From Novosphingobium sp. G106 (GTDB lineage Bacteria > Pseudomonadota > Alphaproteobacteria > Sphingomonadales > Sphingomonadaceae), in the NCBI RefSeq assembly GCF_019075875.1, contig NZ_JAHOOZ010000001.1, forward strand, positions 248,001 to 312,000: DNA of 64,000 nt, read 5' to 3'. This document shows, one piece after another, positions 26,325 to 64,000 of the stretch; within the stretch, counting starts at the first letter, position 1; the number at the start of each line of letters is the position of its first letter. The position numbers were made by a program, and so were the translations under genes. The notes under the pieces were generated by a model, which searched no databases, was not told the origin of the DNA, and saw nothing but the letters and a program-made list of their open reading frames with translations.

Positions 26325-26361
26325 GGCGCATTGGCACAGTGCCCCAAGGGGGGGCTTCCGC

Positions 26362-28409: not shown

Positions 28410-28419
28410 AGAGGATGCA

Positions 28420-29472: not shown

Positions 29473-29499
29473 AACGATAACAGAACGGGATTGAGGGAT

Positions 29500-31963: not shown

Positions 31964-32033
31964 GCCGCAGTGCAACGACCTTCGATATCCATCCATGCCA
32001 GGCGTCAGATCCGGCAGAAGGGGAGTACCATCC

Positions 32034-32660: not shown

Positions 32661-32675
32661 GCGGAGATCCAGACA

Positions 32676-34358: not shown

Positions 34359-34371
34359 GGGGAACGCAGAC

Positions 34372-35055
34372 GTGGCCAGCAATCCAGGCATGGCTGCTGT
34401 CGCCGTTACCCCGCTTCAGGTGCCGGGGCGGCGCGGTCGGCCAACGGCCCCACATGTTGCGGCGATCGAGGACGAAATCCTCGACGCCGCGCACGCGCTG
34501 TTTCTCGAATTTGGCTACGCAGCCGTCTCGATGGAGGGCATCTCCGAGCGCGCCGGTATCTCCAAGGGCGCGCTCTATGCGCGGTACGCGGGCAAGGAGG
34601 CGCTGTTCCGCGCGGTCATCCGCAAGCGGTCGGACATATGGTCGGCCGAAGCGGGCACGCAGGATCATCTTATGCCGCGCGAGCTTGGGCTGCGGCTAAT
34701 TCACCACGCCCGGATGCTTGTGCGCATGTTTGCCCGGACCAAGTACTGTCAGACCTCGCAGTTGATCCAAACTACTGCAATCTCCTTTCCAGATATCGCG
34801 ATCTACTGGCAGCAAAATGGCGCCCGGAAATACATTGATTACCTGGCAGCGGATATGGCTTCGGTCGAGGGCCCAAACCGAGGAGACTGTCCAGATTGGC
34901 AGTTCCTCGCGTGGCTGCTCCTCGATGGATTGTCCGGCTGGTACGGCCTCGAGGCTTTGTTAGGCGCGGTTTCGGACGAGCGGATGGATTGCTTTGCCGG
35001 GCAACTCATTGAAACGATCCTTGCGGCGATTGCCGCGCATGAAAATCCGCTGTGA
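34372..35055 (+). CDS. TetR-family transcriptional regulator
   Basis: About 227 residues from a GTG at 34372, which follows GAGGGGAACGC; ATG 34390 is an alternative. The HTH is EDEILDAAHALFLEFGYAAVSMEGISERAGISKGALYARYAGKEALFRAVI, followed by a C-terminal domain with WQFLAWLLLDGLSGWYGLEALL. Located 13 bp after the GMC gene, it is probably co-transcribed with the second dehydrogenase module and acts as its local regulator. Confidence 0.85.
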   Translation: MASNPGMAAVAVTPLQVPGRRGRPTAPHVAAIEDEILDAAHALFLEFGYAAVSMEGISERAGISKGALYARYAGKEALFRAVIRKRSDIWSAEAGTQDHLMPRELGLRLIHHARMLVRMFARTKYCQTSQLIQTTAISFPDIAIYWQQNGARKYIDYLAADMASVEGPNRGDCPDWQFLAWLLLDGLSGWYGLEALLGAVSDERMDCFAGQLIETILAAIAAHENPL

Positions 35056-35080
35056 TCGCAGTTCAACTAAGGGGCATCCC

Positions 35081-36205: not shown

Positions 36206-36218
36206 ACGAGGAATATTG

Positions 36219-41894: not shown

Positions 41895-43994
41895 CTAGCT
41901 CTCTCCATCATCGACCTGCAGAGACTGTCGCAAAGGGTCGATTACGGAATAAGTCCAGGCATCTTGGAGCCGCTGATGCACTGCTTGAGCGGTGCTGTGA
42001 GCGGCAGGGCTGATTTCAAACCACTCACGCCAGATCGCCGCAACGTCGTGCTTGTAGCCGGCGCCAAGTCCGTAACGCCCATTGCTTTTCGCCCAGCTCT
42101 CGCTCTCGCCAGAGAGCAACAGCCCAAAAGCATCGCTTCCGATAGCGCGCGCGGTGGCGAGAAACTGCTGCCGATGCTCGTCCATACGCTCCCTGATTGC
42201 CTGCAGGGTCTGCACGATCGTCGGGAGGTCCTGGTATTGATCCTGCAATTCGTCGAGCTTGTGCGCAATGCGCAGCGCCATCGGCGCGGTTCGCAGATTG
42301 GCGTCTATGCGAACGCCTTGCCCCAGGATGTGATCGAACTGGAACTGATTCCAGTCGCCTTTTCGGGCGATTGAGGCGGCGATCGAGCTGTGATGCCCGA
42401 CAGCCATTTGATCGATCAAGTTCTGATGGGCAGGGCGGATGCCGATCGGAAGTGAGGCCACCATGTCCAGGATGCGGCCGAGCTGTGTTCCGACATCCCG
42501 GCGCGCTTCGGCGGCTCGAACGTCCTGAATGTTCTCGCGTAGATTTTGGACGCCGGCAGCTGCCGTGTTTGCGCGCTCAACGTAGTGGCCTCGCATCGCG
42601 CTGATTTGACCGCGCAAAGTCTTCCAGATCTTGTCCGGATCGTCATTGCGAGCATCGAAGAAGTAGATGGGAGTCTTGGGAAGGTTCGCGCTGACGAGTG
42701 CTTGATCGACCTCCTTCCGGCGCACGGCGTAGCCTTGCTGGCGCGAGGAAGGCGGCGTCTCGAAGCCCGACATTTCCAGCGCCTCGTCGCCACGTGGAAG
42801 AACGAGGATGCATTGCCGCATATTCGTGGCAACGTCGTATCCGGCCTCCACGGACTCCTGCAAGAGGCGTTGTACGGTGGCATTCGGCGCGTCGGCGAAT
42901 TTGGTACACAGCACCATCAAGGTGCGAGGGTCTTCGGCCAGATCTGCAAGGTCGGGGCGTTGCGTCACGCTTTCGACCCCTTTGGTGTCGACGACCTGGA
43001 GCACCTGTCCATCCGCGCTTAGATGGCGCGATGGCATGAGAACGGTAATGCGGGCGGGTACGCTGAAACGCGGGTCGAGGCCGCCGTTGATGGCGGATAC
43101 GAGCCGGGACAACCACAATAGGCCATCTTCGCTGCCTTCCGGAAGCAGGATCTGGCGTTCCTTGCGAGCGGGAAGGTCCATTTTCGAGACCACCCGGTCC
43201 GTAACTTCGTCGATGCCAATTCCTGAGGCGAGTAATTCTGCGATCGGGTCATTGGAGACGGTCTCGTCGTCGACGACTGTTTCTGTGGTGCGCATCGCCG
43301 ACATCGTCCGCAGGACGCGGCTCACTTCCGCAGGCACGCCCACGCCCGCGGCCCCCGGAGCAAGGCTGGAGACAAGGTCGCGCGTCAGTCGCAGCACTTC
43401 CTCGTCTTCGATGGTGTCGACCATAATGCCGAATGTGGGGGCAACCCGGATCGCGGTCTCGCACACTGTAGTTCGTCCCGATCCCACGGGAAAGGCCGGC
43501 CGGCGGCCGCTTCTACCATCGCCTACGAGCAATCCCACAGCATGAGTGAGGGCAGTCGTCTTCCCAACACCAATATCGCCGACCCACGCCACAACATGGT
43601 CGCGTCGACGCAGATAGGCCTCCGCCATGCGCAGCTTCGCTCGGAGCAAGCCAATCGGACTACGCAGGATCGGGTCGTCGTTATCTACCTCGAACTCTTG
43701 GAGGTCCCGAAGAGCCTGATCGATCGTCCAAAGGGCATCCTTGTCGGGATGGAGAAATGTCGGGGGTTCCTGTTGGAGCCAGGAACGGGCGTAATAGTCT
43801 CGTACATCGTGGGCGAGCTCGGATCCGATTGCGCTCAGATAGCGATCTGCCATTTCGGCATCGGCTTCGTCGGCCTTCTCCAGCTTGGATAGGACACTCG
43901 CAACGGTTCCCATCGCCTTGGCAAGCGCGGTCTGGCTAAGCCCACTCGCTTCGCGCACGTGCTTGAGCACGTCTGCTGGTATGGTGTAGACCAT
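41895..43994 (-). CDS. XRE-type HTH fused to a dynamin-like P-loop NTPase
   Basis: About 699 residues starting MVYTIP, chosen because GGAG lies 6 bases upstream; an in-frame ATG at 44021 lacks a site. Residues ~8-60 are an XRE/Cro HTH (VLKHVREASGLSQTALAKAMGTVASVLSKLEKAD). A GTPase-like core follows: Walker A GDIGVGKT at 139-146, a G2-like GSGRTT, DTKG (G3-like) at 336-339, and CTKFAD (G4-like) near 365. A long helical C-terminal region of ~300 residues follows, as in dynamin-like proteins. It diverges from the HipA-fusion gene. No separate HipB-like gene is present, so its HTH is the natural candidate for that role. The combination is unusual; function unknown. Confidence 0.72.
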   Translation of the reverse strand: MVYTIPADVLKHVREASGLSQTALAKAMGTVASVLSKLEKADEADAEMADRYLSAIGSELAHDVRDYYARSWLQQEPPTFLHPDKDALWTIDQALRDLQEFEVDNDDPILRSPIGLLRAKLRMAEAYLRRRDHVVAWVGDIGVGKTTALTHAVGLLVGDGRSGRRPAFPVGSGRTTVCETAIRVAPTFGIMVDTIEDEEVLRLTRDLVSSLAPGAAGVGVPAEVSRVLRTMSAMRTTETVVDDETVSNDPIAELLASGIGIDEVTDRVVSKMDLPARKERQILLPEGSEDGLLWLSRLVSAINGGLDPRFSVPARITVLMPSRHLSADGQVLQVVDTKGVESVTQRPDLADLAEDPRTLMVLCTKFADAPNATVQRLLQESVEAGYDVATNMRQCILVLPRGDEALEMSGFETPPSSRQQGYAVRRKEVDQALVSANLPKTPIYFFDARNDDPDKIWKTLRGQISAMRGHYVERANTAAAGVQNLRENIQDVRAAEARRDVGTQLGRILDMVASLPIGIRPAHQNLIDQMAVGHHSSIAASIARKGDWNQFQFDHILGQGVRIDANLRTAPMALRIAHKLDELQDQYQDLPTIVQTLQAIRERMDEHRQQFLATARAIGSDAFGLLLSGESESWAKSNGRYGLGAGYKHDVAAIWREWFEISPAAHSTAQAVHQRLQDAWTYSVIDPLRQSLQVDDGES

Positions 43995-44021
43995 GGAATT
44001 CTCCGACTTTCTCCATTCCAT

Positions 44022-44170: not shown

Positions 44171-46003
44171 ATGGCGCTCCATTTGGTGGGGGAAACCCTC
44201 GACAGGCATCGCGCCCACGCGTTGGCGCGCACTGGCAAACTCCTAAGCTTGCACCGCGGCGTCTATGTGGACGCGGATGACGATATCGACAAGGTCGTCG
44301 TCGATCACGCGGTCCGCATAGCGGCTTTCCTCTATCCGCAAGCCTACCTTTCCGGTGCAAGCGCTAGCCGGCTGGCTGCTACGGAGGATGGCCAGCTGTT
44401 CCTCTCGGGCCGGCGCAACAACCGCACGCGCATCCGCGGGCTGGAGATCATTCAGAACCAGGCGCCCGCGCAGCCATCCACGATCCCCGTCATCGTAGGC
44501 GATGACATGGGCGAACTCCATCTTACCGCCTCTTCACTTCGTCAGCGCTTTCTTGAAGCTTTTCGCCAACGCAGCCAGCATGCCAACGCGATTGACCCCG
44601 CAATGCGCCGGCAGATGGCAGATCGACTGATCGAGGAATTCGGCCATGCCGATGCCGCTGCCGACCAGCTGTGGGCGCTTGGCCGGGTTAACCAGTGGAT
44701 CCGGGAAACGGAAGCTGCCGAACACTACCTCAGGACCGACGCTCGCCAGGCGGCGCCCATAAACAAGGCCGGCTTCGAACTCGTAGTCGCCTGGCATGGA
44801 GACGTGGTGGGGCACCTCACGCACGACGGCGCAGAGTGGAGGTGGATTGCAGCGGACGGTCCGAACCCGCCGTTGGTCAGGGAAAATCGTCCGGGGAGCC
44901 TACCCGCTTTTATCGAATCCCTATTGCCAGAAGGTTGGCTCGCTCAGGTCCTTGACCAGCGCGACGAGCGAGAGACCCTGCGAACGGGAAGCAGGTACAT
45001 GTCGAACATCGCCATCGTCGCCGACCTTGATCAGTTGGCGGAGCTTCCTGCCGACGTCATCGAGGGACGTCTCGCGCAGTTCGATGACGCTGGCCTCTTC
45101 ACCGGCCGATATCTTGGCCCTGCCAAGCAAGCGCTCGAAGATTCGTTCCAGGAAAAACTGGCCCGCCTCTTCGCCGACCGGCATACTCCGCGACTGTCAG
45201 GCATCCAGATCAAGGCTCCCATGTCTCTGCGTGTGGACGGTCATCTGATCCCGGCGGTGGAAGCGCCCTTCACGCACATCCTCAAGCCTGCGGGTACAGG
45301 GGGATACGAGCAGCTGCCCATTGTCGAATGGATATGTCTCGGCCTTGCGCGCGCAGCGGGCTTCGAACTTCCGGAAGTGGCCTTGATAGATATGCCAGAC
45401 GGCATGGCGCCTGCGCTGCTCGTCGAGCGCTTCGACATACGCCGATCCGGCAACGATACGCGGCGCCTGGCTCTGGAGGACTTCTGTTCGGTGCTCGACC
45501 TTCCTCCAGCCCGAAAATACGATGGCACGGTCGAGCGAATGGCACGGGGACTTCGAAGCCTGTCCACTGACCCCGCAGCCGATCTCGAGATTCTATTTCA
45601 GCGTGCACTATTCGCCTGGCTCATCGCGGACGGCGACATGCATCTTAAGAATCTCGCGCTTCTCAAGGTCGCCGAGGCTGGCGCCGACCGGTTTAGGGAT
45701 GTCCGCTTTTCCCCCGTTTACGATGCCGTCACCACGCACGTCTTCCCAGGGCTCGAGAGCGATCGAATGGCTTTCAAACTCAACGGCAAAGACAATCGTC
45801 TGACCCCTGACGACTTCCATGCGTTGGCTCGGACAATTGAACTGCCGCAGGCACGCGCAAGTGAGCTGATGGCATCTTGCGCGCGCCGAGTGGCCGATGC
45901 AGCGCCGGCCCTCGCACTGCCCGCGCCCTTCGCAAATCGAGGCGATCGCACGCTCGACCGCATTCGTCAGATCGTCCAGGAACGCGCTCAACCATTCGTG
46001 TGA
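44171..46003 (+). CDS. AbiEi-like domain fused to a HipA-type Ser/Thr kinase
   Basis: A 610-residue protein. Residues ~1-130 resemble the AbiEi antitoxin winged-helix region (ALARTGKLLSLHRGVYVDAD, AYLSGASASRLAATEDGQLFLSG). Residues ~195-260 are HipA_N (ELVVAWHGDVVGHLTHDG, SLPAFIESLLPEGWLAQVL). The kinase core has SGIQIKAP with Ser343, matching the regulatory autophosphorylation Ser of HipA, THILKPAG, Asp489-x-His491-x2-Asn494 (GDMHLKN) as catalytic loop, and Asp518 in PVYDAV for metal. All key residues are intact. HipA kinases phosphorylate tRNA synthetases and arrest growth. Fusion of an AbiEi-like module to HipA, without a small hipB gene, is the odd feature. Confidence 0.82.
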   Translation: MALHLVGETLDRHRAHALARTGKLLSLHRGVYVDADDDIDKVVVDHAVRIAAFLYPQAYLSGASASRLAATEDGQLFLSGRRNNRTRIRGLEIIQNQAPAQPSTIPVIVGDDMGELHLTASSLRQRFLEAFRQRSQHANAIDPAMRRQMADRLIEEFGHADAAADQLWALGRVNQWIRETEAAEHYLRTDARQAAPINKAGFELVVAWHGDVVGHLTHDGAEWRWIAADGPNPPLVRENRPGSLPAFIESLLPEGWLAQVLDQRDERETLRTGSRYMSNIAIVADLDQLAELPADVIEGRLAQFDDAGLFTGRYLGPAKQALEDSFQEKLARLFADRHTPRLSGIQIKAPMSLRVDGHLIPAVEAPFTHILKPAGTGGYEQLPIVEWICLGLARAAGFELPEVALIDMPDGMAPALLVERFDIRRSGNDTRRLALEDFCSVLDLPPARKYDGTVERMARGLRSLSTDPAADLEILFQRALFAWLIADGDMHLKNLALLKVAEAGADRFRDVRFSPVYDAVTTHVFPGLESDRMAFKLNGKDNRLTPDDFHALARTIELPQARASELMASCARRVADAAPALALPAPFANRGDRTLDRIRQIVQERAQPFV

Positions 46004-46556
46004 GCGGGGAGGAGGGGCGCCTCATCGGCCCTGACGGACCTTCGCGCGTCACTTTTACGCTTCCTCACAAAGCGGGCCCGTGATGTCGGCGATGGGTGAT
46101 GGGCTCGTTCGCAGATAGCAAATGCGCCCACACGATGCCCTCGCCAAGCATATCGGTGATCTGTCCAAAGACATCACGATTGATCTTCACGCCCGACTAG
46201 CTTGGCGGGAGGAGTCTATTGGGTTCTCGTTCCGCCGACTTTCGGCCATTCAACGCGCCAAATCGGATTCCCGAGAACTGCCGTACATTCAGCAGTCAAT
46301 CGTTGTGGTTCCGAAAAGAAACGAACCCTTTGGGGCGTCGTTGATATCAACCGCTGGATCGCCGATGTAAAAGGCGATGTCGGGGCGTGACCCGCGCCAA
46401 GCGCACGACATGTCATGGCCTGGCACCGCACGAGTGAACGCCAATTCGCCACAATCTTGTAAGCGAGAAATAGTAAATCTAACGGTCGGAGCACAATGCT
46501 TGGAGACCCTCGCAATCTACACTAGATTGACGGCCTCGACGGCAAGGGAGGGGAAA
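46004..46556. other. Intergenic region, repeat element and leader of the caspase gene
   Basis: About 550 bases. A small open frame at 46122-46370 (82 residues) has no recognisable motif and I do not call it. At 46232-46255 lies CCGCCGACTTTCGGCC followed by ATTCAACG, a dispersed motif seen again at 59486. The last 20 bases contain AAGGGAGGGG, the ribosome-binding site that fixes the caspase gene start. Confidence 0.45.
46232..46255. repeat. Dispersed intergenic motif, copy A
   Basis: CCGCCGACTTTCGGCC then ATTCAACG. A closely similar sequence, with one extra T and a G for A, is at 59486-59510. Both copies are intergenic. Confidence 0.35.
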
Positions 46557-48392
46557 TTGGCGAAAGACGTTCCGATTCCGGAAAAGATATTTGTCGCTAT
46601 CTCGGTCGCCAATCCTGAAAAGCTGACTCCGCTTGCTGGTGCCACGACCGCGGCTCTGCGGATGGCCAGGTGGGCGCGCCGCATGGGTTACCTGGTAGTT
46701 CCGGTCCACGACGCCGACGGAGAGGTCACCATCTCGCTCCTTCAACGAAAAATCGTGGAGGCTATCGAACTTGTTCAGCAGGAAAAAGTACTGCGGAGGA
46801 TTGTCGTATTCTTCGCGGGGCACGGCGGGACCAAGGATATCGAAGAGCCCTATTGGCTCCTCTCCAATTGGTGGAGCCAGCCGCAAGAAGCTGTCGATAT
46901 CATCCGGTTTCGCCGGATGCTTCGATACTATGCTCCGATCCAGGTTACGCTCATCGGCGACGCCTGCCAAGTCGTTGATAAGGCCTTTCTTGAGCTAAAA
47001 GGCAGTGGGGTCCTCGACCGAAAGGACGAGGACAATCCATTCCCCGAGCTCGATCAGTTCTTTGCCGCAGACGCCGGCGAAGAAGCCTTCATGATCAAAT
47101 CACGAAGCGCAGACGGCGATTTCTGCATTTTTACCGAAGTCTTGCTCGATGCCCTCGAGGGCGATGCGCCGAACGCGTTCGATCAGCACCGACAAGGCGA
47201 CCCTGTCGTCACCAGCACGTCGTTGGCGCGCTATCTGCAAGAACAAATTCCGATCGAGGCGGGGCGGCACAATGTCTCGATGAAGCCTTGGCCAGTTCCG
47301 GGGTTCTTCACCGATACCGTCTACGCCCAGTTTCCCTCCGGTCTCGGCACCGACGGGCTGGATGTCCCCATCGATTGCACTGACGCGGGGCCGCGCGCTG
47401 GCGAATTGATCGTGACCGACATGGATGACCAGCTTGGTCCCAAGATCGATTTCGCCGAGATCAAAGCGCAGAAGCAGTCGCGTGCTGTCGGCATATTTCG
47501 GGATCTTATATTTACCGACACGCCCAACTACTCGATCTCGGGCAGCGGGCTTGTCGTTATCGGTCTCAAGGTCGCGGCAATCCATGGTGGCGGGTACGAG
47601 GCGGATCCCGGTCATCACGGCGCGTTCCGGCTCTATTTGTCTAGTGAGCCAAACAATCTGTCTTGGAAGGATTATGTCGTCGAGCTCGTCGATGGCCGCT
47701 GCGTCTATGTGTGCGGGGTCCAGTGGTTCATGGCCAAGCTTTTCGTGCACGAGCATGGCGAGATCAGTCTCGTGCACCGTCACATCTCCGAGAAAGCCAA
47801 GCCCGCGCCGGTCGTCTCCGGTGCGCTCGCCGATCTTGCCGCGGGCCGGATCGGACGGGTCAGCGCCGTCGACCTGGCAGCTCAGGTGCGGCGCGGCAAG
47901 CATCTCGATTACACGCTGGGGCTGCTCGCGGCCTACCTCTACAACGCGATCGGTGACATTGACGGCATTCGGTCGATCGCCTGGTACTACCACCGGGAAG
48001 GGCAAGTCATTCCGCTCGACATCGCGTTGCTGACGGGCGGGAAGCTCCATATGGGCGATGACGGGACGCTAACCGTCGACATTCCCGCAACGCAGAAGCG
48101 CAAGCCGCGCACCGATGTTGAAGACGGCCTTGCCTTCACCACCTCGGCCACATCGGCAGTCTCGGGAGCGGCGGTAGGCGGCCGGGCTCCTTGGCTGCGC
48201 AGCGGGTGGCGGGCAATCGAAACGGCACTTCTCCACGAAAGCGCGGAGGAATGGCGCCAATGCGCGATGAACGTCGTGCCCCATCTTACCGAAGGCCAGT
48301 TCCTCACCGTGCGACCCGAGGGGAAAGCGGCATTGCTGAAGTTGATCGAACGGGCGCGGTCGATCTCGATGGAAATGGTTAGGGACGCGTGA
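46557..48392 (+). CDS. Caspase-like (peptidase C14) protein
   Basis: A 611-residue protein from a TTG at 46557, chosen because AAGGGAGGGG sits just upstream; the open frame itself extends up to 46377. The N-terminal ~270 residues form a caspase/metacaspase-like domain: IFVAISVANPEKLTPLAGA, VVFFAGHGGTKD with catalytic His89, and VTLIGDACQV with catalytic Cys137. The C-terminal ~330 residues are of unknown fold and may sense or bind a partner. No signal peptide. It is followed after 4 bp by an alpha/beta hydrolase gene. Bacterial caspase-like proteases act in regulated cell death and antiphage systems, usually switched on by an associated sensor. Confidence 0.78.
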   Translation: MAKDVPIPEKIFVAISVANPEKLTPLAGATTAALRMARWARRMGYLVVPVHDADGEVTISLLQRKIVEAIELVQQEKVLRRIVVFFAGHGGTKDIEEPYWLLSNWWSQPQEAVDIIRFRRMLRYYAPIQVTLIGDACQVVDKAFLELKGSGVLDRKDEDNPFPELDQFFAADAGEEAFMIKSRSADGDFCIFTEVLLDALEGDAPNAFDQHRQGDPVVTSTSLARYLQEQIPIEAGRHNVSMKPWPVPGFFTDTVYAQFPSGLGTDGLDVPIDCTDAGPRAGELIVTDMDDQLGPKIDFAEIKAQKQSRAVGIFRDLIFTDTPNYSISGSGLVVIGLKVAAIHGGGYEADPGHHGAFRLYLSSEPNNLSWKDYVVELVDGRCVYVCGVQWFMAKLFVHEHGEISLVHRHISEKAKPAPVVSGALADLAAGRIGRVSAVDLAAQVRRGKHLDYTLGLLAAYLYNAIGDIDGIRSIAWYYHREGQVIPLDIALLTGGKLHMGDDGTLTVDIPATQKRKPRTDVEDGLAFTTSATSAVSGAAVGGRAPWLRSGWRAIETALLHESAEEWRQCAMNVVPHLTEGQFLTVRPEGKAALLKLIERARSISMEMVRDA

Positions 48393-48396
48393 GGCG

Positions 48397-49269
48397 ATGA
48401 GACTGGTCTTTGTTCACGGTATCAACCAGCAAACGAAGAGCAGCGCCTCGATCCAACAGGCTTGGCTCGACGTGCTGCGGCCGACCGGGAGCCCCGGGGA
48501 TTGGCCCGGTGATGCTGTCAGCGGCGTCGCGACCCCGTTCTACGGCGACCAGCTCTTCGCCTTGTCCGAGGCCGGCCGAAGGGCCGCGGCGATTGCCCAG
48601 GGCGCTGGCGAAATTCCCGATGAGTTCGCAGAATTCGCAGGCCCGGCGTTGGCCGAGATGGCGTTTCGGGCGGGCGCCGACGAAAGCGCTATGGCGGCCG
48701 AGGCCGATAAGATCGCCATCGCCCAGGGCGCTGGACCGCACAAGACCTGGCTCAAGGCAGCGGCGCGCGCGATTGAGGCGATCTCGCCGCTCAAAGGGGA
48801 GATCGCGCTTCGCTTGCTCGGTCAGGCACATGCCTATCTGAAGCGACCTCACATTATGGCGGAGATCGACGATGTCGTGCGACCTGCGCTCGAAGGTGAT
48901 GAGCCGATGATCATCGTCGCGCACTCGCTTGGCACGATCGTCACCTACAAGCTGCTGCGCGAATTCTCCGCTGCAGGAAAGCCCCGGCAATGCCCACTCT
49001 ATGTCACGCTCGGCTCGCCTTTGGGAATCGACGTGGTGCGCAAGAGCTTTGCCCTACCGCGGGGCCGCCCGGCCGACGTCGCCCGCTGGGTCAACGGGGC
49101 CGACCCAGAGGACTTCGTCGCACTACGGTCCGTGCTCGATGCGACGACCTTTGGCAGCGGCATCGAGAACATCTCGAATATCGAAAACGGCTATGACGAT
49201 CCGCACGCGATCACCCGCTATCTGGCCAATGCGGATATCGCGTCATTGATCCGCACAGCGATCGGATGA
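48397..49269 (+). CDS. Alpha/beta-fold serine hydrolase (lipase/esterase-like)
   Basis: A 290-residue protein starting MRLVFVHGINQQTK. HG in FVHGI forms the oxyanion region, and the nucleophile elbow is VAHSLGT with Ser177. The terminal His is probably in NGYDDPHAITRYL. The helical cap (residues ~60-150) is large. No leader peptide, so it acts in the cytosol. It starts 4 bp after the caspase-like gene and must be co-expressed with it. Alpha/beta hydrolases of this kind serve as effectors or as lipid-acting partners in several proteolytic conflict systems; which applies here is unknown. Confidence 0.8.
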   Translation: MRLVFVHGINQQTKSSASIQQAWLDVLRPTGSPGDWPGDAVSGVATPFYGDQLFALSEAGRRAAAIAQGAGEIPDEFAEFAGPALAEMAFRAGADESAMAAEADKIAIAQGAGPHKTWLKAAARAIEAISPLKGEIALRLLGQAHAYLKRPHIMAEIDDVVRPALEGDEPMIIVAHSLGTIVTYKLLREFSAAGKPRQCPLYVTLGSPLGIDVVRKSFALPRGRPADVARWVNGADPEDFVALRSVLDATTFGSGIENISNIENGYDDPHAITRYLANADIASLIRTAIG

Positions 49270-49285
49270 CCCAGCCACTCTAGGG

Positions 49286-50335
49286 TCATTGCGTCCATTC
49301 GAATGTGGGACACCCGGTCCTGCCTTGCTCATCGCCGTCGACGGGCGTTGCCATAAGCTTTCGCGCCACCGAGGTCAGACCGTGCATGCCGTGCATAATC
49401 GCGGTGAAGAGCACTTTCGGCGACCCCGTCATCGCGTCTTCCAATTGCCGTAGCATCGTTGTGTAGCGGATATTGAAAAGGTGATTGAGCTCCGCAGCGC
49501 GCGAGCCGACCGTGTAGTCCGCCGCTTTTGCATTCTCGAGGATCGGGTAGACCTTTGCATAGTCGATCTCGATCGCCGGCCCCGTAGGCTTGCCGGCCGG
49601 ATCGTCCGCCGGCGTAAAATGCTTGCCGAAATGGATCTCCGCAAAGCGGTAGTAATGGCCGATACCAAACGGCCGCACGACATCCTCGGCGAAGCCGGCA
49701 GGGGTTGCGGGCCATGAACCCTCGCCCTGGGTTATGGCCTGGGTAAGCGCGGCCTTGGCGCTTGCCAGATCAGTGACGGGCGTGACCTGGCCGCCTCCGG
49801 CCCAATAATAGTCGCTGTCCAGCTGCCGGGCGGGATCGCCGACGAACAATGATCCGGGCGCTTCCGCCTCGATTTCCTCGAGCAGCTTGATCAGGTCGTC
49901 GTAGAATTGCCCGATGGTCGGCGCGGGAACATCGATCTTCCCGCCCAGCGCGACGGCTGCGATCATCGACGCGGGCTTCTCGATCTCCATGAAGGTCTTG
50001 ATGGTGTTCGGCGAGAAGGCCGCGAGCGGCACCGGAAAACGGCGATCAGCAAAAGCCTTGCCGTTGAATTTCAGCACAAGAGGGTAGACGGGATTGGCGT
50101 TTCGATCGATCCGGACAGTGCCGCCGACGGCGTTGATGACATTGGCGACCAGCGCCAGATGCAGCATCTCCTCGATCGCAACGCTGCGGATCCGCTCGGC
50201 GGCGTCGCGGTTTTGCGGAAGCTTGATGCTGAGCAGCGCCACGAGATAGGCAGGGATGGTCGCCAGTTCGAGCTCGAGCGCGGTCTGCAACCCCGCCGAC
50301 AGAGCTGCGCGCTTTTCGTCGATCGACATTGCCAT
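49286..50335 (-). CDS. Ferritin-like protein (VioB/RebD iminophenyl-pyruvate-dimer-synthase type)
   Basis: A 349-residue protein. The N-terminal ~230 residues form the ferritin-like helical bundle found at the ends of VioB and RebD: LQTALELELATIPAYLVALLSI with a metal-binding Glu, then IRSVAIEEMLHLALVANVINAVGG with the ExxH motif. The C-terminal part (FGIGHYYRFAEIHFGKHFTP) belongs to the same family. It may bind a di-iron centre or act as a stand-alone oxidase. It is the last gene of the leftward five-gene operon, 1 bp after the GMC stop. Substrate unknown. Confidence 0.78.
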   Translation of the reverse strand: MAMSIDEKRAALSAGLQTALELELATIPAYLVALLSIKLPQNRDAAERIRSVAIEEMLHLALVANVINAVGGTVRIDRNANPVYPLVLKFNGKAFADRRFPVPLAAFSPNTIKTFMEIEKPASMIAAVALGGKIDVPAPTIGQFYDDLIKLLEEIEAEAPGSLFVGDPARQLDSDYYWAGGGQVTPVTDLASAKAALTQAITQGEGSWPATPAGFAEDVVRPFGIGHYYRFAEIHFGKHFTPADDPAGKPTGPAIEIDYAKVYPILENAKAADYTVGSRAAELNHLFNIRYTTMLRQLEDAMTGSPKVLFTAIMHGMHGLTSVARKLMATPVDGDEQGRTGCPTFEWTQ

Positions 50336-50336
50336 C

Positions 50337-51926
50337 TTATGGGCCCGTCCTTACGAGATGATCGCCGAGCCGGTAAGCGAGCGCGGCAAGCGTGAGGGTG
50401 GGATTGACCGACCCAAGGTTCGGCATCACGGCGTTCGAAATCACGTAGACGTTGTCGGTGCCATGCACTTTGAGGTTGGCGTCAACCACACCCACCTTCT
50501 CGTCTTCACTCATCCGGCACGTCGAGGCGGCGTGGTCCGCCCGCCACGAGACGGTATAAGCACCATCGAGTTTGGCGCCCATGGCGGCGAAGATCTCGCT
50601 GACCTTCTTCTCGATCGTCAGCATTCTGCCGTTGAAGGCGCCGTCCTGAGCAAATGAGACGGTGGTCATTGGCAGGCCCACCTTGTTGAGGGCGCCCATA
50701 TTCCTGACGGTATTCGTCGAGCGGCCGAAGACCTCGACCATCCCCTGGATCGTGACCTTGTTGGGACCGGCAAGGTTCTGATCGATCTTCGCCCGATCGG
50801 CTCCGCCTTGCATCTGAGCCGCGAGCGAGAAAGCGGGCGTGTCGGGTGGTGCCACCATCATGAACTTTCCCGCCGCCTGTTCGGTCGGGCTGTCGAAGTG
50901 CCGCGAAACCAGCGTCGGGAAATTCAATTCCGGTTGCAGCCGCAGCTTGTTGTCCGGCAGGATGGCCGTCATGACGAAATAGGGGTGCGTGATCAGATAA
51001 CGCCCCACCTGGTCGTTGTGATTGCCGATCCCGTCTAGCCAATCATCGGATTTCGATCTGAGAAGCAGCTTAGCGGACTCGATCGCGCCGGCCGCGACGA
51101 TCACCCGATCAGCCGCGACACGAACGACGTCGCCGCTCGCCTTGTCGTAGTAGACTACGGCGCTGGCCTGGCGTTTTGTCCCGGTCTCGATCGCCAGCAC
51201 CGGCGTACCGGTTCTGATCTCGAGGCCCGGAAAATCGTTCCATTCGATGAGGTCGTCGAGATAGTTGCTGGCCACGTAGCGTGCGCCAAACGGGCAATAT
51301 TTGCAGGTTCCGGTGGTTTGGCACGGCGCGTGGCGCGACGGCACCTCCGAAACGCCGCGGCGGGCGATCGGTAGCTGTCCATAGCCTATACCGAGCTTAT
51401 CGAAGGCATCCGCGTAGATCTTGTCTTCGAGCGTGAAGGGGAAAGCCGCGAATGGAAACTCGCGCGTGCGCGGCACAACCGCATCCTTAGAATCCCCTGA
51501 GACCGCGAGATGATGTTCGGCTTGGCAATAGAATTCCTCGAGCTCCGCATAGCCAAACGGCCAGTCGATGCTCTCGCCGGTGTTATGTTGGAGCAGGAAA
51601 TCCTCCGGCTTCATCCGGAACGCCCAGCCGCCCCAGTGCAGCGTCGTGCCGCCATAAGCGAAGAGGCGGGCACCGCGCAGCGGGACCTCGGTGGCCCCCG
51701 CGTTCTGGTTCTCGCCAGGATCGTCACGCTGCGGATAGTTGGCGTCGCGGGCGTTGTCGTAAGGCAGTCCGCCCGTTACGAGATAGTTCTCCCACAGTCC
51801 GAAATCCTTCGTCGTCACGCGGCTGCCGGCCTCGAGCACGACGATCTCGGCATGCCTGTTATTGGCGAGCAAAGTCTCGATGACGACAGTGGCGGCAACG
51901 CCCGATCCAATGATGACCGTCTTCAT
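50337..51926 (-). CDS. GMC-family FAD oxidoreductase
   Basis: A 529-residue flavoenzyme. It has KTVIIGSGVAATVVIETLL at the N-terminus, GGTTLHWGGWAFRM, and the cysteine segment PCQTTGTCKYCPFGARY, comparable to the iron-sulfur hinge region of FAD-dependent dehydrogenases. The C-terminal catalytic pair is His in WRADHAASTCRM and Asn in SVNPTLTLAALAYRLGD. More diverged than the two glycoside-island GMC proteins. Its start overlaps the upstream stop (ATGA). With the 155-residue protein before it, this may be a two-subunit dehydrogenase. Confidence 0.83.
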   Translation of the reverse strand: MKTVIIGSGVAATVVIETLLANNRHAEIVVLEAGSRVTTKDFGLWENYLVTGGLPYDNARDANYPQRDDPGENQNAGATEVPLRGARLFAYGGTTLHWGGWAFRMKPEDFLLQHNTGESIDWPFGYAELEEFYCQAEHHLAVSGDSKDAVVPRTREFPFAAFPFTLEDKIYADAFDKLGIGYGQLPIARRGVSEVPSRHAPCQTTGTCKYCPFGARYVASNYLDDLIEWNDFPGLEIRTGTPVLAIETGTKRQASAVVYYDKASGDVVRVAADRVIVAAGAIESAKLLLRSKSDDWLDGIGNHNDQVGRYLITHPYFVMTAILPDNKLRLQPELNFPTLVSRHFDSPTEQAAGKFMMVAPPDTPAFSLAAQMQGGADRAKIDQNLAGPNKVTIQGMVEVFGRSTNTVRNMGALNKVGLPMTTVSFAQDGAFNGRMLTIEKKVSEIFAAMGAKLDGAYTVSWRADHAASTCRMSEDEKVGVVDANLKVHGTDNVYVISNAVMPNLGSVNPTLTLAALAYRLGDHLVRTGP

Positions 51927-52393
51927 CAGGCGCCCTCGTCGATGCCGCGATACGGTCTATCCGACGGGTCGTTCGTGCCCCCGAAATAGCCGTTGAAATT
52001 GCGGGCTCCGAACGATTTGAAGCCGCCAAAGGCCAACCTCATGGTGATGAATTCGTTGACGACGAAGCGCTTGGCCACGTCGATCGCGGTGCTGGGCACC
52101 CCGTCCGGGACCTTGATCTTGAACAGCGTCTCGAACGCCTTCTCGTTACCCTGCGCCGCAATCAAATCCGCGATCACTTCGGCGGCGGTCGAATAATAGC
52201 CGCGATACAGCGGACTGATCGCGATCCGGTTGTCCATGAACACTTTGAGGCGCGATCGGTAGGGCTCGGGATCATCCCCAAGCTTCCAATAGGTGCCGAT
52301 GGCGACGAACATCGTCCACAAGGGCTCCGGGATGCCATAGGGCGCCTCGAGGATCTCGCGCGACAGCGGATGGACAATCTTGTTTTGATACAT
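51926..52393 (-). CDS. Small protein, putative partner of the GMC oxidoreductase
   Basis: A 155-residue protein without leader peptide: MYQNKIVHPLSREILEAPYGIP, a helical middle (AAEVIADLIAAQGNEKAFETLF) and a Gly/Phe/Asn-rich end with GYFGGTNDPSDRPYRG. Size, position and end resemble small subunits of GMC dehydrogenases, but I cannot confirm the family. Stop and start overlap (ATGA) with the GMC gene, which implies stoichiometric production. Without a Tat leader the complex should stay cytosolic, in contrast to the glycoside-island modules. Confidence 0.6.
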   Translation of the reverse strand: MYQNKIVHPLSREILEAPYGIPEPLWTMFVAIGTYWKLGDDPEPYRSRLKVFMDNRIAISPLYRGYYSTAAEVIADLIAAQGNEKAFETLFKIKVPDGVPSTAIDVAKRFVVNEFITMRLAFGGFKSFGARNFNGYFGGTNDPSDRPYRGIDEGA

Positions 52394-52419
52394 GCGAGAA
52401 TTCCCTGGAGGAGTTGCCG

Positions 52420-53721
52420 TCAGACCTTCAGTGTGATGCTCGCTCCCGGGTTGAAGGCAGCGCTGAGCGTGCCGTTCGATTGCTGGACCAATTGCGCGAT
52501 ATGGGCTTCCACGGCGGCATAGGTCTTCTGCTCGTCGCTGCCCGGCTCCTGCGCGGACGAGGTGGTGCTGAACCAGAACTTGAATTTGCGCCCTTCCGCG
52601 GCCGGATTGAGCGTACGCTGCGCCGCCTTGCCCAAGCGCGATTGATAGATGAGGTCGATCACCGAAAGCTCGGGATTCCCATTCTCGCCGTTCCCGCAGA
52701 AGATGTAGTGGTCGGCGGAAACGTGCTTAGCGAAGTTCTCGTCGAGATTATATTCCGAGGCGTGATGCTGCACTTTGAGCACATCAAGATGAATGCTGCC
52801 GCCTTCGAGAAAACCCGTCTGCTCAAGACCCGCGAGGATGAAATCCTGCTGCGAGTCTCCGGTGAGGAGGAGCCGCTTGCCATTCTCCTCGACCATGAAC
52901 ATCAGCGAGGCGATGTTCGGCGCTGTCACGCCCTTGTAGGGCGCGATCCCATTCCACCGGCTGCCGACCGTGGTGAGATCGCTCACGCCGTCGAGCTTCT
53001 CCTTGATCTCGCGGCGAACCCGGGCGAGCCCTGCATGCCCATCGGTGGATTCGAGCCAGGTATTCCAGCCCTTCTTCAGCGCCTCGAGCTCCTTGGTTCC
53101 CGGGCCGACGATTGTCAGGATCATCGAGCCGACGGGGATGGACTGCTGGTCGCGCCGCATCATAAGCAGTTTTGCCGGCCCCTGGGCGCCAGGCAGCTGG
53201 TTGGTGGGAATCTTGAGCAGATCGGCGGACGCGAGGCGTGACACCTTCAGTGCCTCGGGGATCGACAGCGCGATCTCCTGATAGACGATCCCCAAGCCCC
53301 TGAGCTCCGCGTCCCCAGTGGCGAGCAGGGTGGCGGCCGATGCCGCCAGCAGCTCCTCTACCTTGTCGGCGTTTTGTCCCACCTGGTCACGGAAGGCATT
53401 GTGCCAGATACCGCCGATCTCAGGCGGGCGGGGCACCTTGGGTTTGGGCTTCGGCGTGCCTTTCGCCTTGTGGTGATCGTAGAGCCGCCACTCGAGCTCG
53501 TCCTCGAGCAGCGCGAGGACGCCGGAAATGTGATCCTGATCGATATGCGACACGTAGACGTAGTCGATCTTGATGTTCCGGGTGCGTAGCTTCGCGAGCT
53601 CCTTGCGCACCACGCCTCGCATGCTGTCGTGCATGCCGCCGTCGCAGAGTATCCGGGCGCCGTCATTGGCCTCTAGGAGCAGGCAATCACCCTTCGACGA
53701 TTGGAAGATTTCAATCTTCAT
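52420..53721 (-). CDS. Metallo-beta-lactamase-fold hydrolase, ComEC-MBL-like
   Basis: A 433-residue protein. It starts with MKIEIFQSSKGDCLLLEANDG, typical of stand-alone relatives of the ComEC/Rec2 MBL domain. The metal motif is His59-Ile-Asp61-Gln-Asp63-His64 (SHIDQDHISG); the second and third are LLTGDSQQD and VQHHASE. An insertion of ~120 residues follows the HxDxDH motif. The family hydrolyses nucleic-acid or nucleotide phosphoesters. It lies 3 bp after the subtilase stop. MBL proteins of this type recur beside proteases in bacterial conflict loci; here the substrate is unknown. Confidence 0.8.
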   Translation of the reverse strand: MKIEIFQSSKGDCLLLEANDGARILCDGGMHDSMRGVVRKELAKLRTRNIKIDYVYVSHIDQDHISGVLALLEDELEWRLYDHHKAKGTPKPKPKVPRPPEIGGIWHNAFRDQVGQNADKVEELLAASAATLLATGDAELRGLGIVYQEIALSIPEALKVSRLASADLLKIPTNQLPGAQGPAKLLMMRRDQQSIPVGSMILTIVGPGTKELEALKKGWNTWLESTDGHAGLARVRREIKEKLDGVSDLTTVGSRWNGIAPYKGVTAPNIASLMFMVEENGKRLLLTGDSQQDFILAGLEQTGFLEGGSIHLDVLKVQHHASEYNLDENFAKHVSADHYIFCGNGENGNPELSVIDLIYQSRLGKAAQRTLNPAAEGRKFKFWFSTTSSAQEPGSDEQKTYAAVEAHIAQLVQQSNGTLSAAFNPGASITLKV

Positions 53722-53724
53722 CGC

Positions 53725-55884
53725 TCAGACCTCCCTGCGATCGCTGAACGTGCGCGCTTCGGCCACCGCCGCGGCAGCGTCGATGACGCCGAAACCGGCA
53801 TCATTCGCCCAGCTGTATGACGCGCCCGGAAGCGGCTTTGCCGTGCGTTGCAGGATGCCCGAGCATTGCGCGGAGGTGAGATCGGGATTGACCGCGAGCA
53901 TGAGCCCCACGACGCCCGTGACATAGGGGCTCGCCATGCTGGTCCCGGTCATCGAGAGCCATGCCTTGCCATCCTCGCTGAACCCTTTGGCCGCGACTAT
54001 GTCGGTGCCGGGCGCCGATACCTCGGGTTTGCAGCGACGGTCGCGCGTGGGACCTTGGCTGCTCGACGCGTTGATCCGCTGCTTGGTCTCGTCGAGATTG
54101 GCGACGGCGATGACGCGGTGGCCGCAAGCCAGCGAGCTGATCGAATGGGAATCGACATTGCTCTCCTCGGAAAAGAACGATGGGAAGCGGATGAGGCGCA
54201 CGCCCCGCTGACTGCCGACATCGATCGGATCGTCGCGCTCGATCCAGCAGTCGAAACGCCCATCTCTGACTTCCTCGCCAACGAGCCTGACCGTCCAGAC
54301 GCCCGATGCCACGCCGCGCAGATTCGCCCGGTCAAGATTGGGCGTGAGGTAGATTGCGGCGTAATTGGCGCCGTTGGTTGGATGATAGAGCTCATTGTAG
54401 ATCGAGACCGTCGTGCCGCTCGGCAGCCGCCGGTTCTCGACATATTCGCACGGCTTGACGGTGATCCATTCGCTCGACCCTGGGGCCTTCAGCATGACCG
54501 TCAGCCGATCTTGCGCGCCGTACCAAATTTCGAGCTCGTTCTCCGACATGTCCTCCATGCCGTTGCCGATCACCGTCCATTCCAGATCAACCGCAAGTCC
54601 GCTAGCGGCGATCTGACCGCTTGCGTGAATGCGCCCCATGACGAAGCCGAGATCGTCGTCACTCAGTGCTTTTTGCTGGCCGGCGTTGCCTGCCGCCACC
54701 GAGATAGCGCGTCCCGGGGTCGAGAGAAGCGCATCAAGCCAGCGTGAGACCCCGTTCGAGCCGTCATGTGCTGCACCGTTGGTGCCCAGACTGATGTTGA
54801 TCGAGATGGGTTTCTTCTCGCGCGCGGCGATCTCCAGAAGATATTCGACGGCATCGACTATCCGTGTCGTGTCAGTGAAAGTGGCCCGCCGTTCTTCGAG
54901 CGCCGTGTTTTGCAACGGTACGGAAATCAGCACGGCAGCAATCTCCGCCTTCGGGCAGACGCCGGCGTTACCCGCTGCGATACTGGCAACGTGCGTGCCG
55001 TGCGATCCCTCGCTCGATTGCGACTGCCTTTCGACATAGGTCGCGGGGAATTCCCCGGCCTTTTCCGCGGCGATCGCCGCGTTCAGCAGCGGCGCGGTCA
55101 ATTCGCTCCCATAATCGAACCGCGTCTTGCGATTGCCCGACGGCGGTTTGCGGGAGTCGCCACCCTGATCCCAGATCGAGAGGAACCGGGTTTTGCCTTG
55201 CGCATCGAGAAAATCCTCGTGGGCGAAGTCGAAACCGCCGACATCGATAATGCCTACGATGACACCTTGACCGTCCTTGTGCTCGGCTATCAGCGCGGCG
55301 TCGCCGACCGTTCGCGGCGTGGGAGCAGGGCCGCCATTGCGCACGACCGTTGGTCGGTCCAAGGTCAGCGGCTCGGAAGGGTGGACAAAGGCTATCTCGG
55401 GATCGCGCTCGAGATCCTTCAATGCCGAGACGGGGATCGCAGCTGAGACGAAATTGCGTCGGACAAGCACCTGCCGCCGCCGCTGCATCTCGCCGTCGCC
55501 GTCCTTTGCCGCAAGCGCTTCCAATTTTCGGATCGTTTTAGGGCTGGTGTCTCCAGACTCTCCAGATCGCACCAGTTCCACAAACACGTTCACGAAGGAG
55601 TTGTTCGCCTGCGGCTCATTCTTGAGCTTTGGACGCCTCTTAAGCCGCGGCCGACTTTCCCTTGGGGCTTCGGCCAGGCCGGACGAAAGAAGGTCGAGCC
55701 CGGCAGCCAGGCCAGGGGAACCTACTAAAGATTTGAGAGTCTGCAACGGTGCCTGGGCAGGAGCCGGAGAGCTCGCGACAATCGAACTCAGGTCAGAACG
55801 GAGAAGATTTACTTCGGCCGCACCGTTTCGGATGCATCGGAGTCGCGGATGAAGTTTGCGTGAAAAGCGGTCCTTACTTGCCAC
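53725..55884 (-). CDS. Subtilisin-family (S8) serine protease
   Basis: A 719-residue protein from a GTG. A ~200-residue N-terminal region without leader peptide includes a basic linker (RPRLKRRPKLKNEPQ) and may act as pro- or sensor region. The S8 catalytic triad is complete: Asp214 in GIIDVGGFDFAH, His298 in GSHGTHVASI, and Ser649 in SGTSMASPYVTG. A beta-rich insertion of ~200 residues separates the His and Ser blocks. Absence of a signal peptide suggests an intracellular protease. First gene of the leftward operon, 3 bp ahead of the MBL gene. Confidence 0.87.
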   Translation of the reverse strand: MASKDRFSRKLHPRLRCIRNGAAEVNLLRSDLSSIVASSPAPAQAPLQTLKSLVGSPGLAAGLDLLSSGLAEAPRESRPRLKRRPKLKNEPQANNSFVNVFVELVRSGESGDTSPKTIRKLEALAAKDGDGEMQRRRQVLVRRNFVSAAIPVSALKDLERDPEIAFVHPSEPLTLDRPTVVRNGGPAPTPRTVGDAALIAEHKDGQGVIVGIIDVGGFDFAHEDFLDAQGKTRFLSIWDQGGDSRKPPSGNRKTRFDYGSELTAPLLNAAIAAEKAGEFPATYVERQSQSSEGSHGTHVASIAAGNAGVCPKAEIAAVLISVPLQNTALEERRATFTDTTRIVDAVEYLLEIAAREKKPISINISLGTNGAAHDGSNGVSRWLDALLSTPGRAISVAAGNAGQQKALSDDDLGFVMGRIHASGQIAASGLAVDLEWTVIGNGMEDMSENELEIWYGAQDRLTVMLKAPGSSEWITVKPCEYVENRRLPSGTTVSIYNELYHPTNGANYAAIYLTPNLDRANLRGVASGVWTVRLVGEEVRDGRFDCWIERDDPIDVGSQRGVRLIRFPSFFSEESNVDSHSISSLACGHRVIAVANLDETKQRINASSSQGPTRDRRCKPEVSAPGTDIVAAKGFSEDGKAWLSMTGTSMASPYVTGVVGLMLAVNPDLTSAQCSGILQRTAKPLPGASYSWANDAGFGVIDAAAAVAEARTFSDRREV

Positions 55885-61580: not shown

Positions 61581-64000
61581 GTGGCGACCATTAATCAGGC
61601 ATTGCAAGGGATTGGCCGCATGAGGTTCCGCGTAACCGCGCGCACCATCCTTCATCTTGGGTCCGACCTCATCAGCTCCGATGGGGTGGCCTTCTACGAG
61701 CTGGTGAAAAACTCGCTGGACGCGAAGTCGCCCGAGGTCAGGGTGGACGTACTTGTCCGCATGCCGTTCGAAGTATACGACGAGCTCCTTCGCGAGCTTG
61801 GCGAGCGCAGGGAGCCGAATGAGCGCGGCATCGCTGCGCCCGCGCGTGCCCCCAGGACCTGGAAGCATCTACGTGAGACCGCCATTGCCGCGATCGACCA
61901 AGAAGCCCCGGAGAGTGGCGATCTGATCGAAGCGCTTCGAGACGCCGATACCAAGCGAGAGTTCGTGGCGGCCCTGCGGGACGCCAATAGGATCGACGTC
62001 GATGACGACGGCGACGGAATGGACATTGAGACCCTAGAGAGCGTCTACTTGACGATTGGGACGGGGCAGCGAGCGCGGGAGCGCGACGCGCAGGCGGCTC
62101 GACCACTGGATCCCCTCGAAGACGAGGATCAGGCGCATGTAATACTGGGCGAGAAGGGGCTTGGCCGTCTGTCGGCCATGCGGCTTGGAGACGCACTTGA
62201 AGTTCTGACCGCCACAGCCAGCGACAGGCATTGGAATGTCCTCAACATCAACTGGAACGAGTTTGCGGACGCCGCGGACGAGGACATCTCTTCGGTTGAG
62301 GTGACTCCAGAGGAGGGCGGGCCGAAGGATTCTATCCGCAAGGGAACTCTCATTAGGATTACGGCGCTCACGTCTGCGTGGAGCTATGATAAGCTCGAGC
62401 TCCTCGCGCGGGAGCACTTCTCGAAGCTTGTGGACCCGTTCAGCAGGCGAACATTGCCATTAAGGCTCAAGTTCAATGAGATCAGCGTGGAGATCCCGCC
62501 GTTCTCATCCTTCATCCTCGACCATGCGCACGGCGTCTTCGATGCGCACCTGGGTTTCGATGAAGGCGGGCAGCCGATCTTGTCCGGAATGATGAACTAC
62601 CGCATGCGCGGTCGCCGGCGTCCGTTCGCGTTCCGGGGGTGGAGGTCGCGAGTCTGGCGGGCGATGTGACGGCCGAGACGCTCCGGCGCATGGGCCCGTT
62701 TCGTGTGGAAGTCTACTGGTTCAATCGGCGGGTTCTGAAGAAGATCGAGGGCATTGGCGACTTAAACGCTGTCCGCCGGCTGCTGGCCCTCTGGGCGGGC
62801 GGTGTGATGCTGTTCCGCGACGGCTACAGGGTCAATCCCTATGGAGGGCAGAACGACGATTGGCTGGATCTGGACCGAAACGCGTTCTCAACGAGCGGTT
62901 TCAAGTTGAACCGTGGTCAGATCGTAGGGCGCGCTCTAATCACCAAGTCTTCGAACAAGTATCTGGTCGATCAGTCCAACCGCGAAGGATTGAAGGACAC
63001 GCCCGAGAAGGCCGCCTTCGTTGCGCTGCTGGGAGAGACCATGGAGTATTTCCGCGGCTTCGTGGTGCAGATCGATGAGGAAATATCTCGTGCCAACAGG
63101 GTTGAGGCGGGCGACGCCCTAGACCGGTTCAGGGCGGAGGATGCTAAGCTTGAGGAGATCATGCCTGCGCTCCTCGCGCTGTTGAAGACGACTCCCGACG
63201 GGCGGCTCCTTTCAAAACAGGTTAAAGACGCGGTTACTTCGCTTCGCGAAGCGGCGTCGGAAGTCGAGACGGCGGCGCGGGCGCAAGAACTCGAACGCAA
63301 TCGGGTCATGCATCTCGCCAGCGTGGGCTTGTTGATAGAGGTCTTGGCGCACGAACTTTATCGTGCCACAGCCGGTGGCTTAAAGACGATCGCTAGCGCG
63401 CGCGCTGCACGAGATCCCCAGTCTACGGGGACCCAGTTGCGCGTTCTCGACGCCCAGCTTCGGACACTGCAGAAGCGTCTAAAGGTTCTGGATCCACTCT
63501 CAACCAATGCAAGGCAGACCAAGGAGGAGTTCGATCTTGCCGATTGGGTGAAGGACATCGTCGAGGGATACGCGACCCAGAATGCGCGTGCGAACATCCT
63601 TATCCGGACAGTGGTGAGGCCCCGGGGCGCGCAACGACGGGTCCGAGCCGTCAAGGGGATGTTCGTTCAAATCATTGAGAATCTTCTTTCGAATTCGGTT
63701 TACTGGATCAGGCAGCAAGACAAGTACGACCGGAGCATCGTCGAGCCCGCGCACGATGGGCCCATCGGTCACATCACGGTGCTCGTGGAACCCGAGGCGG
63801 GTCGGGTGACCATCACCGATGATGGGCCGGGCATCCCGGAGGATCGCCGCGAGCTCGTGTTCGAACCCTTCTTCACAACGAAGCGCCAAAAGCAGGGACG
63901 GGGCTTGGGACTATACATTGGCCGGGAGATTGCGGCCTATCATGGGGCGACACTCTCGTTGGGCGACGAGGACGACGACGGTTACATTCACTCCGTCATA
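61581..64000 (+). pseudogene. Double GHKL-ATPase, histidine-kinase-like protein, frameshifted and cut by the window edge
   Basis: Starts at GTG 61581 or ATG 61620. An N-terminal GHL/Hsp90-MutL-type ATPase has E27-x3-N31-x2-D34-A35 (ELVKNSLDA, numbered from 61620), DDGDG at 129-133 and GEKGLG at 177-182. At five G (62635-62639) the frame shifts: one G seems missing, and the reading frame stays open from there to base 64000. That second part has a DHp-like helix with LLIEVLAHELYRA (candidate phospho-His) and a classical kinase ATPase: ENLLSNSVYWI (N box), DDGPGIP (G1), FEPFFTTK (F box), GRGLGLYI (G2). No membrane segments or sensor domain. Two ATPase modules in one chain are rare. The C-terminus is outside the window. 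Confidence 0.75.

What the first reader, a model, noticed from the sequence alone, without database searches (positions are those of the whole stretch)
46557..55884. Convergent protease locus: caspase plus hydrolase against subtilase-MBL-GMC-ferritin operon
Seen: a caspase-like gene (His89, Cys137) and a serine hydrolase spaced by 4 bp converge, 16 bp apart, on a five-gene operon with spacings of 3, 26, -3 and 1 bp: S8 protease without signal peptide, ComEC-type MBL, small protein, GMC oxidoreductase, ferritin-like protein. Two different leaderless proteases with complete catalytic residues beside an MBL hydrolase is the pattern of proteolytic conflict systems. The redox trio (GMC, small protein, VioB/RebD-type ferritin-like) is not part of any such system known to me. 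Inference: either a new defence/cell-death system with a redox arm, or a defence pair next to a biosynthetic operon processed by the subtilase.
Basis: partly seen in the sequence, partly recalled or inferred. Interest (0 to 1): 0.78.

Follow-up and report, generated by a model that had tools for sequence, protein, structure and literature searches.

The report
Stacked protease and redox gene modules
Three separable gene modules sit side by side here (a protease paired with a probable DNA-cutting enzyme, a caspase paired with a hydrolase, and a set of redox enzymes); the first is most likely a variant of a recently described kind of bacterial immunity in which a protease switches on a nuclease.

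Summary
The seven genes are present and intact. They are probably not one system but three modules that also occur apart: (1) S8 protease + ComEC-type MBL, paired in 47 of 50 loci of this S8 subfamily, with correlated trees; (2) caspase + alpha/beta hydrolase, paired in 8 of 8 loci seen; (3) small protein-GMC-ferritin-like redox trio, found again on three Rhizobiales plasmid loci. Near-identical S8-MBL copies carry different genes just past the MBL stop: trio, IetAS, or a pentapeptide-repeat ORF; others carry caspase-hydrolase or a hemocyanin-type copper oxidase. The MBL is related to Avs1a/LmuA nucleases and has about 130 extra residues in the stretch where published nuclease-protease pairs have gating insertions (PMC12799240). 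Best explanation: the subtilase cuts the MBL and frees a DNase; the caspase pair is a second, independent proteolytic unit; the trio is redox cargo. No activity was tested; whether the redox cargo takes part in defence is open. That paper's main text names no subtilase partner, but its supplement was not readable, so I rate this a variant.

The parts
46557..48392 (+). caspase-like protease: paracaspase-type catalytic domain, then a poorly predicted linker, a beta domain and a helical C-terminal part; start codon uncertain (46377-46557)
48397..49269 (+). alpha/beta hydrolase, weakly lipase-like; S177, D239, H270 invariant in 8 of 8; next to the caspase in 8 of 8 loci seen
49286..50335 (-). ferritin-like protein (PF12902, the domain of VioB/RebD-type enzymes)
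50337..51926 (-). GMC flavoprotein with a cysteine motif CQTTGTCKYCP shared by 5 of 5 aligned
51926..52393 (-). small protein (SML), 155 aa, no Pfam family; weakly like a Tat-signalled small protein beside another GMC (L100/L112)
52420..53721 (-). ComEC/Avs1a/LmuA-type MBL hydrolase, probable gated pro-nuclease
53725..55884 (-). S8 subtilase, Csp-like, with an N-terminal region before the catalytic domain and an insert at about 404-580; no signal peptide by eye

Best explanation
The locus is a stack of three separable modules. Module 1 (S8+MBL) is a nuclease-protease pair: in the resting cell the MBL is a pro-DNase whose active site is covered by insertions; on an unknown trigger the Csp-like subtilase cuts them and the MBL degrades DNA, killing or arresting the invaded cell. 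Module 2 (caspase+alpha/beta hydrolase) is a second proteolytic unit, in which the caspase most likely releases or controls a lipase-like hydrolase. Module 3 (SML-GMC-ferritin-like) is a flavin dehydrogenase complex with a ferritin-like partner, carried as redox cargo at an exchange point behind the MBL. Shown: gene content, pairing, separability, exchange junctions, fold and motif conservation, extra residues in the MBL. Inferred: all cleavage steps, the trigger, the DNase activity, and any role of the redox trio in defence.
Against: No cleavage, nuclease, lipase or defence activity was tested. The MBL insertions are mostly predicted with fair to good confidence (block means 74-96) and only about 241-270 is poor (50-63), whereas the published gating insertions are described as disordered. 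No sensor gene (STAND, helicase, AAA) was recognised in the operon. The tree correlation does not control for shared species history. Neighbours of several genomic S8-MBL pairs are ordinary (MoeA, amidohydrolase, periplasmic-binding proteins). In L111 the MBL is annotated in two pieces.
Confidence: 0.6

Rival explanations
1. All seven genes form one two-operon defence or cell-death system with a redox arm.
For: Convergent 16-bp junction; S8-MBL beside caspase-hydrolase again in L001; the trio beside S8-MBL again in L106; a cytochrome-like gene of trio loci about 2 kb upstream of caspase-hydrolase in L101.
Against: The modules occur apart in most loci seen, and DNA identity shows S8-MBL and caspase-hydrolase each matching different partners. 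No other locus seen holds all three.
Confidence: 0.08
2. The redox trio is an ordinary plasmid-borne metabolic enzyme that is merely parked beside defence genes.
For: Distant relatives (37% ferritin-like) sit with GH15, iolE-type and TIM-barrel genes; GMC plus small subunit is a usual dehydrogenase arrangement (recalled); a cytochrome-like gene precedes it in L106 and L108; in L106 the trio is not in the S8-MBL operon but converges on it, and its near-identical S8-MBL relatives lack it.
Confidence: 0.4
3. The subtilase processes the redox proteins (maturation of a biosynthetic operon), and the MBL is an accessory hydrolase.
For: Close packing of the five genes in the window.
Against: S8-MBL stands without the trio in the 47 other pairs counted, and the trio without this S8 in L107-L109; no biosynthetic partner was recognised among the operon's proteins.
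Confidence: 0.05
4. S8-MBL acts against other plasmids (exclusion or incompatibility) rather than phages.
For: The plasmid loci opened are large Rhizobiales plasmids, with IetAS beside it in L110/L111; of 50,697 phage records one has a weak partial MBL hit.
Against: The window copy lies on a 6.17-Mb contig, and 4 of the 44 genome pairs on contigs above 1 Mb (L012, L017, L019, L024), so it is not plasmid-bound.
Confidence: 0.25

Closest known systems
Nuclease-protease pairs of AVAST, Hachiman, Lamassu and DRT (Tuck et al. 2025, PMC12799240)
   Same: MBL of the Avs1a/LmuA kind, extra residues between the metal motifs, adjacent protease whose tree tracks the MBL
   Different: The protease is a stand-alone Csp-like subtilase upstream of the MBL, not a trypsin-like domain fused to a defence enzyme downstream of it; no sensor gene recognised in the operon
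Canu caspase-nuclease systems (same paper)
   Same: Caspase-type protease and ComEC-type MBL at one locus; MALT1-like caspase domain followed by a beta domain
   Different: Here the caspase is paired with an alpha/beta hydrolase, lies on the opposite strand from the MBL, and in 6 of 8 loci has no such MBL near it
IetAS (AAA ATPase + S8 protease, PADLOC)
   Same: A subtilase system in plasmid islands; lies next to S8-MBL in L110/L111 and next to the trio in L108
   Different: The window S8 is only weakly IetS-like (E 0.0017) and has an MBL, not an AAA ATPase, as partner
Clostridial Csp germination proteases
   Same: Best solved-structure relatives of the S8 by sequence (E 5e-23); known to activate a zymogen (recalled)
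   Different: No spore context in the window; partner is an MBL
VioB/RebD-type ferritin-like enzymes
   Same: PF12902 domain
   Different: A 349-aa protein without recognised violacein or rebeccamycin partner genes in the operon

Membership tests
Nuclease-protease pair (Tuck 2025) | MBL homologous to Avs1a/HamM/LmuA nucleases with ComEC-type core | tested here: met
   (related, though under the NCBIfam Avs1a cut-off)
Nuclease-protease pair (Tuck 2025) | two insertions that block the nuclease active site | tested here: inconclusive
   about 129 extra positions in the right region; blockage of the active site not measured, insertions mostly ordered in the model
Nuclease-protease pair (Tuck 2025) | adjacent, co-inherited protease | tested here: met
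   47 of 50 loci, r=0.81
Nuclease-protease pair (Tuck 2025) | trypsin-like protease fused to a defence enzyme | tested here: not met
   S8 family, no fused defence domain recognised
Nuclease-protease pair (Tuck 2025) | site-specific cleavage activates the DNase and protects from phage | not testable with these tools
   needs biochemistry
AVAST type 1 | STAND NTPase Avs1c in the operon | tested here: not met
   no STAND hit among the ten ORFs scanned
Canu | nuclease gene downstream of the caspase gene in one locus | tested here: not met
   caspase on the opposite strand, followed by a hydrolase in 8 of 8 loci
Canu | MALT1-like caspase domain | tested here: met
Canu | Ig-like domain after the caspase domain | tested here: inconclusive
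   a beta domain at 341-419 is predicted, but the structural rows listed span only about 15-273
IetAS | AAA ATPase IetA next to the S8 protease | tested here: not met
   no IetA hit among the ten ORFs scanned
VioB/RebD pathway | large VioB/RebD protein with partner pathway genes | tested here: not met
   349-aa protein; no such partner recognised among the ten ORFs scanned; the size of VioB/RebD is recalled

The most novel reading that the evidence does not exclude
S8-MBL is a general proteolytic switch with an interchangeable third cargo, and part of that cargo is oxidative: the GMC/ferritin-like trio (window, L106), a hemocyanin-type copper oxidase of the prophenoloxidase superfamily directly behind S8-MBL (L002), and a LodA/LodB-type oxidase pair upstream of S8-MBL (L110). 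Proteolysis in infected cells would then release both a DNase and an oxidative burst, a bacterial counterpart of the arthropod protease-prophenoloxidase cascade.
Probability: 0.13. Interest if true: 0.88.

Novelty: new variant of a known kind. Interest (0 to 1): 0.6.

Why it matters
If true, it adds a Csp-like subtilase to the trypsin-like and caspase partners described for nuclease-protease pairs in bacterial immunity, in hosts of several phyla, and points to a caspase-hydrolase pair that the family libraries scanned do not name. Both are small, clonable units for testing proteolytic activation. The exchange junction behind the MBL gives a way to look for further effector cargo, including redox enzymes that I do not know from any defence system (recalled; one narrow paper search found none).

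Tried and rejected
One system of seven genes: rejected on separability. PF00656 search of the own genome: no match, so the caspase's identity rests on motifs and fold. Prevalence in the class (385 genomes drawn evenly): S8 at E<=1e-60 in 2 of 385, the own one and G204, beside whose S8 no MBL was found; small protein in 2 of 385, the second a weak Tat-signalled relative; caspase in 12 of 385, of which only the own genome and G111 match in the C-terminal half too, the other ten only within the catalytic part. In one search those ten loci (L088-L097) showed neither this caspase nor the hydrolase above 60 bits and are not in the 8 of 8. First-look limits of these searches mean that relatives can be missed. 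Viral contigs: none for S8 or small protein, one caspase-hydrolase. Empty site: in 40 relatives the two flanks gave only single-gene matches, and I saw no relative with both close together in the listings. PADLOC and Pfam gave no firm name for the caspase, hydrolase or small protein.

Limits and rows dropped. Their linkage to the small protein is inferred only from equal contig lengths (7961 and 24345) in two lists: 2 of 6 non-self relatives, two of the others being on contigs under 1.7 kb. 33 of the 80 loci (generic S8, 33% identity or less) were dropped before the pairing count; 3 of the 50 counted lack an MBL hit (L025 ends at the S8; L042; L051). L106, L110 and L111 also have the pair but are not in the 50. 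Of 16 plasmid records with a caspase match I opened 5. Of 64 with an S8 match, 40 listed, I opened the records of H17, H20, H22, H25, H26 and H27. Gene picking in my scripts is rough for G+C-rich loci.

Literature. One search found the Tuck paper, one search found it again, searches gave nothing of use, and some searches failed. I therefore do not claim that S8-MBL is absent from print: the paper says that such nucleases also occur with proteases of other families in a supplementary figure that I could not see; the words subtilisin and subtilase do not occur in its main text.

Full report

The S8-MBL pair. I kept 47 of the 80 (identity 44% or more) and three plasmid loci; the 33 generic S8 loci were dropped from the count. 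An MBL lies behind the S8 on the same strand in 47 of these 50; in the 33 dropped loci no MBL hit passed 60 bits, though some of their contigs are short. In a rough clustering of the neighbours S8 (44 loci) and MBL (38) stand out; the next clusters have 3-5 loci, mostly among Cupriavidus, two of them in four loci of mixed hosts. S8 and MBL trees correlate at r=0.81 over 46 pairs against a highest shuffled value of 0.18 in 2000; shared species history was not removed. Host titles include Acidobacteria, Actinobacteria, Proteobacteria, Bacteroidetes, Planctomycetes, Gemmatimonadetes and Chloroflexi (some placements recalled from genus names).

Caspase-hydrolase. Sixteen plasmid records match the caspase; I opened five and found the hydrolase next to it in all five, as in the window, in one IMG/VR contig (L105) and in one genome (L114): 8 of 8. 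Six of these eight have no such MBL in the stretch held. The hydrolase has only weak family and structure hits.

Redox trio. The small protein has seven database matches, one being itself, and four plasmid records, that is three distinct loci, since L108 and L109 are 99.8% identical. In L106 (Rhizobium NZLR1) a cytochrome-like gene and the trio converge on S8-MBL; in L108 the same set is followed by an IetA-like and an IetS-type gene; in L107 the trio is followed by a PLD gene, with a SIR2 gene some kilobases upstream. L116 keeps only a GMC remnant and the ferritin-like gene, with a HipA gene near. The GMC proteins share a cysteine motif (CQTTGTCKYCP, 5 of 5) and the GMC C-terminal motifs. Distant ferritin-like relatives sit in metabolic clusters. 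A weak relative of the small protein is Tat-signalled and lies beside a GMC, so SML-GMC is probably a dehydrogenase pair.

Exchange point. L106, L110, L111 and L040 are 96.8-98.8% identical through S8-MBL. L106 and L040 part from the rest 4 to 44 bp past the MBL stop: L106 has the trio there, L110 and L111 IetAS, and L040 a pentapeptide-repeat ORF with a GTPase gene farther on. In L111 the MBL is annotated in two pieces. L001 joins an S8-MBL like that of L003 (84%) to a caspase-hydrolase like that of L101 (92%), with a XendoU-type gene before and two TmtA-like ORFs after. L002 has a hemocyanin-type copper oxidase gene 114 bp behind S8-MBL, and L110 a LodA/LodB-type pair on the other strand about 1.8 kb before the S8. 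The window thus shows three such modules together. Each pairwise neighbourship outside the window rests on one or two loci, so a shared plasmid hot spot could explain it without any functional tie.

How it works. Most likely three separable modules: a subtilase-gated DNase, a caspase-controlled hydrolase, and redox cargo. My confidence is about 0.65 that S8 activates the MBL, 0.4 that the caspase activates the hydrolase, and 0.3 that the redox trio has a part in defence. The trigger is unknown: no sensor gene was recognised in the operon.

Limits. Results against the reading: several genomic S8-MBL pairs have ordinary neighbours; the twelve plasmid S8 hits above 50% identity are all Rhizobium or Sinorhizobium; the MBL insertions look more ordered than the published ones. 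On checking I lowered the overall confidence from 0.62 to 0.60, because the claim that genome copies are mostly chromosomal and the insertion confidence range had been stated too strongly.

Noticed in passing
window 41895-44021 (-) and 44171-46003 (+): A 708-aa protein with an N-terminal HTH and a divergent 610-aa protein with a HipA_C domain directly beside the locus; possibly an enlarged HipBA-like pair.
   Followed up: no
window 61581-62669 (+): HATPase_c_3 protein with weak PADLOC similarity to a type II restriction enzyme model.
   Followed up: partly
window 24016-39629: Two further GMC genes, a xylose-isomerase-like TIM-barrel gene and a GH106 rhamnosidase: a sugar-oxidation-type cluster that recalls the metabolic contexts of distant trio relatives.
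   Followed up: no
L002 13597-15501: Hemocyanin_M plus Hemocyanin_C protein (the superfamily of arthropod prophenoloxidase) directly behind S8-MBL on a Rhizobium indicum plasmid; two plasmid records carry it, both R. indicum.
   Followed up: partly
L122 29256-32439: A more distant S8 (PADLOC subtilase) followed by a LmuA/Avs1a-like MBL on a Rhizobium phaseoli plasmid, with a second S8 and a cytochrome-like gene in the same stretch.
   Followed up: no
L106 3076-8977: Four annotated TIR-domain genes near the redox trio and S8-MBL.
   Followed up: no
L108 10638-11951; also L106, L101, and distant relatives in L119-L122: Cytochrome-like protein with an N-terminal hydrophobic stretch and a CxxCH motif, weakly P460-like, upstream of the trio in L106 and L108 and near caspase-hydrolase in L101.
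   Followed up: partly
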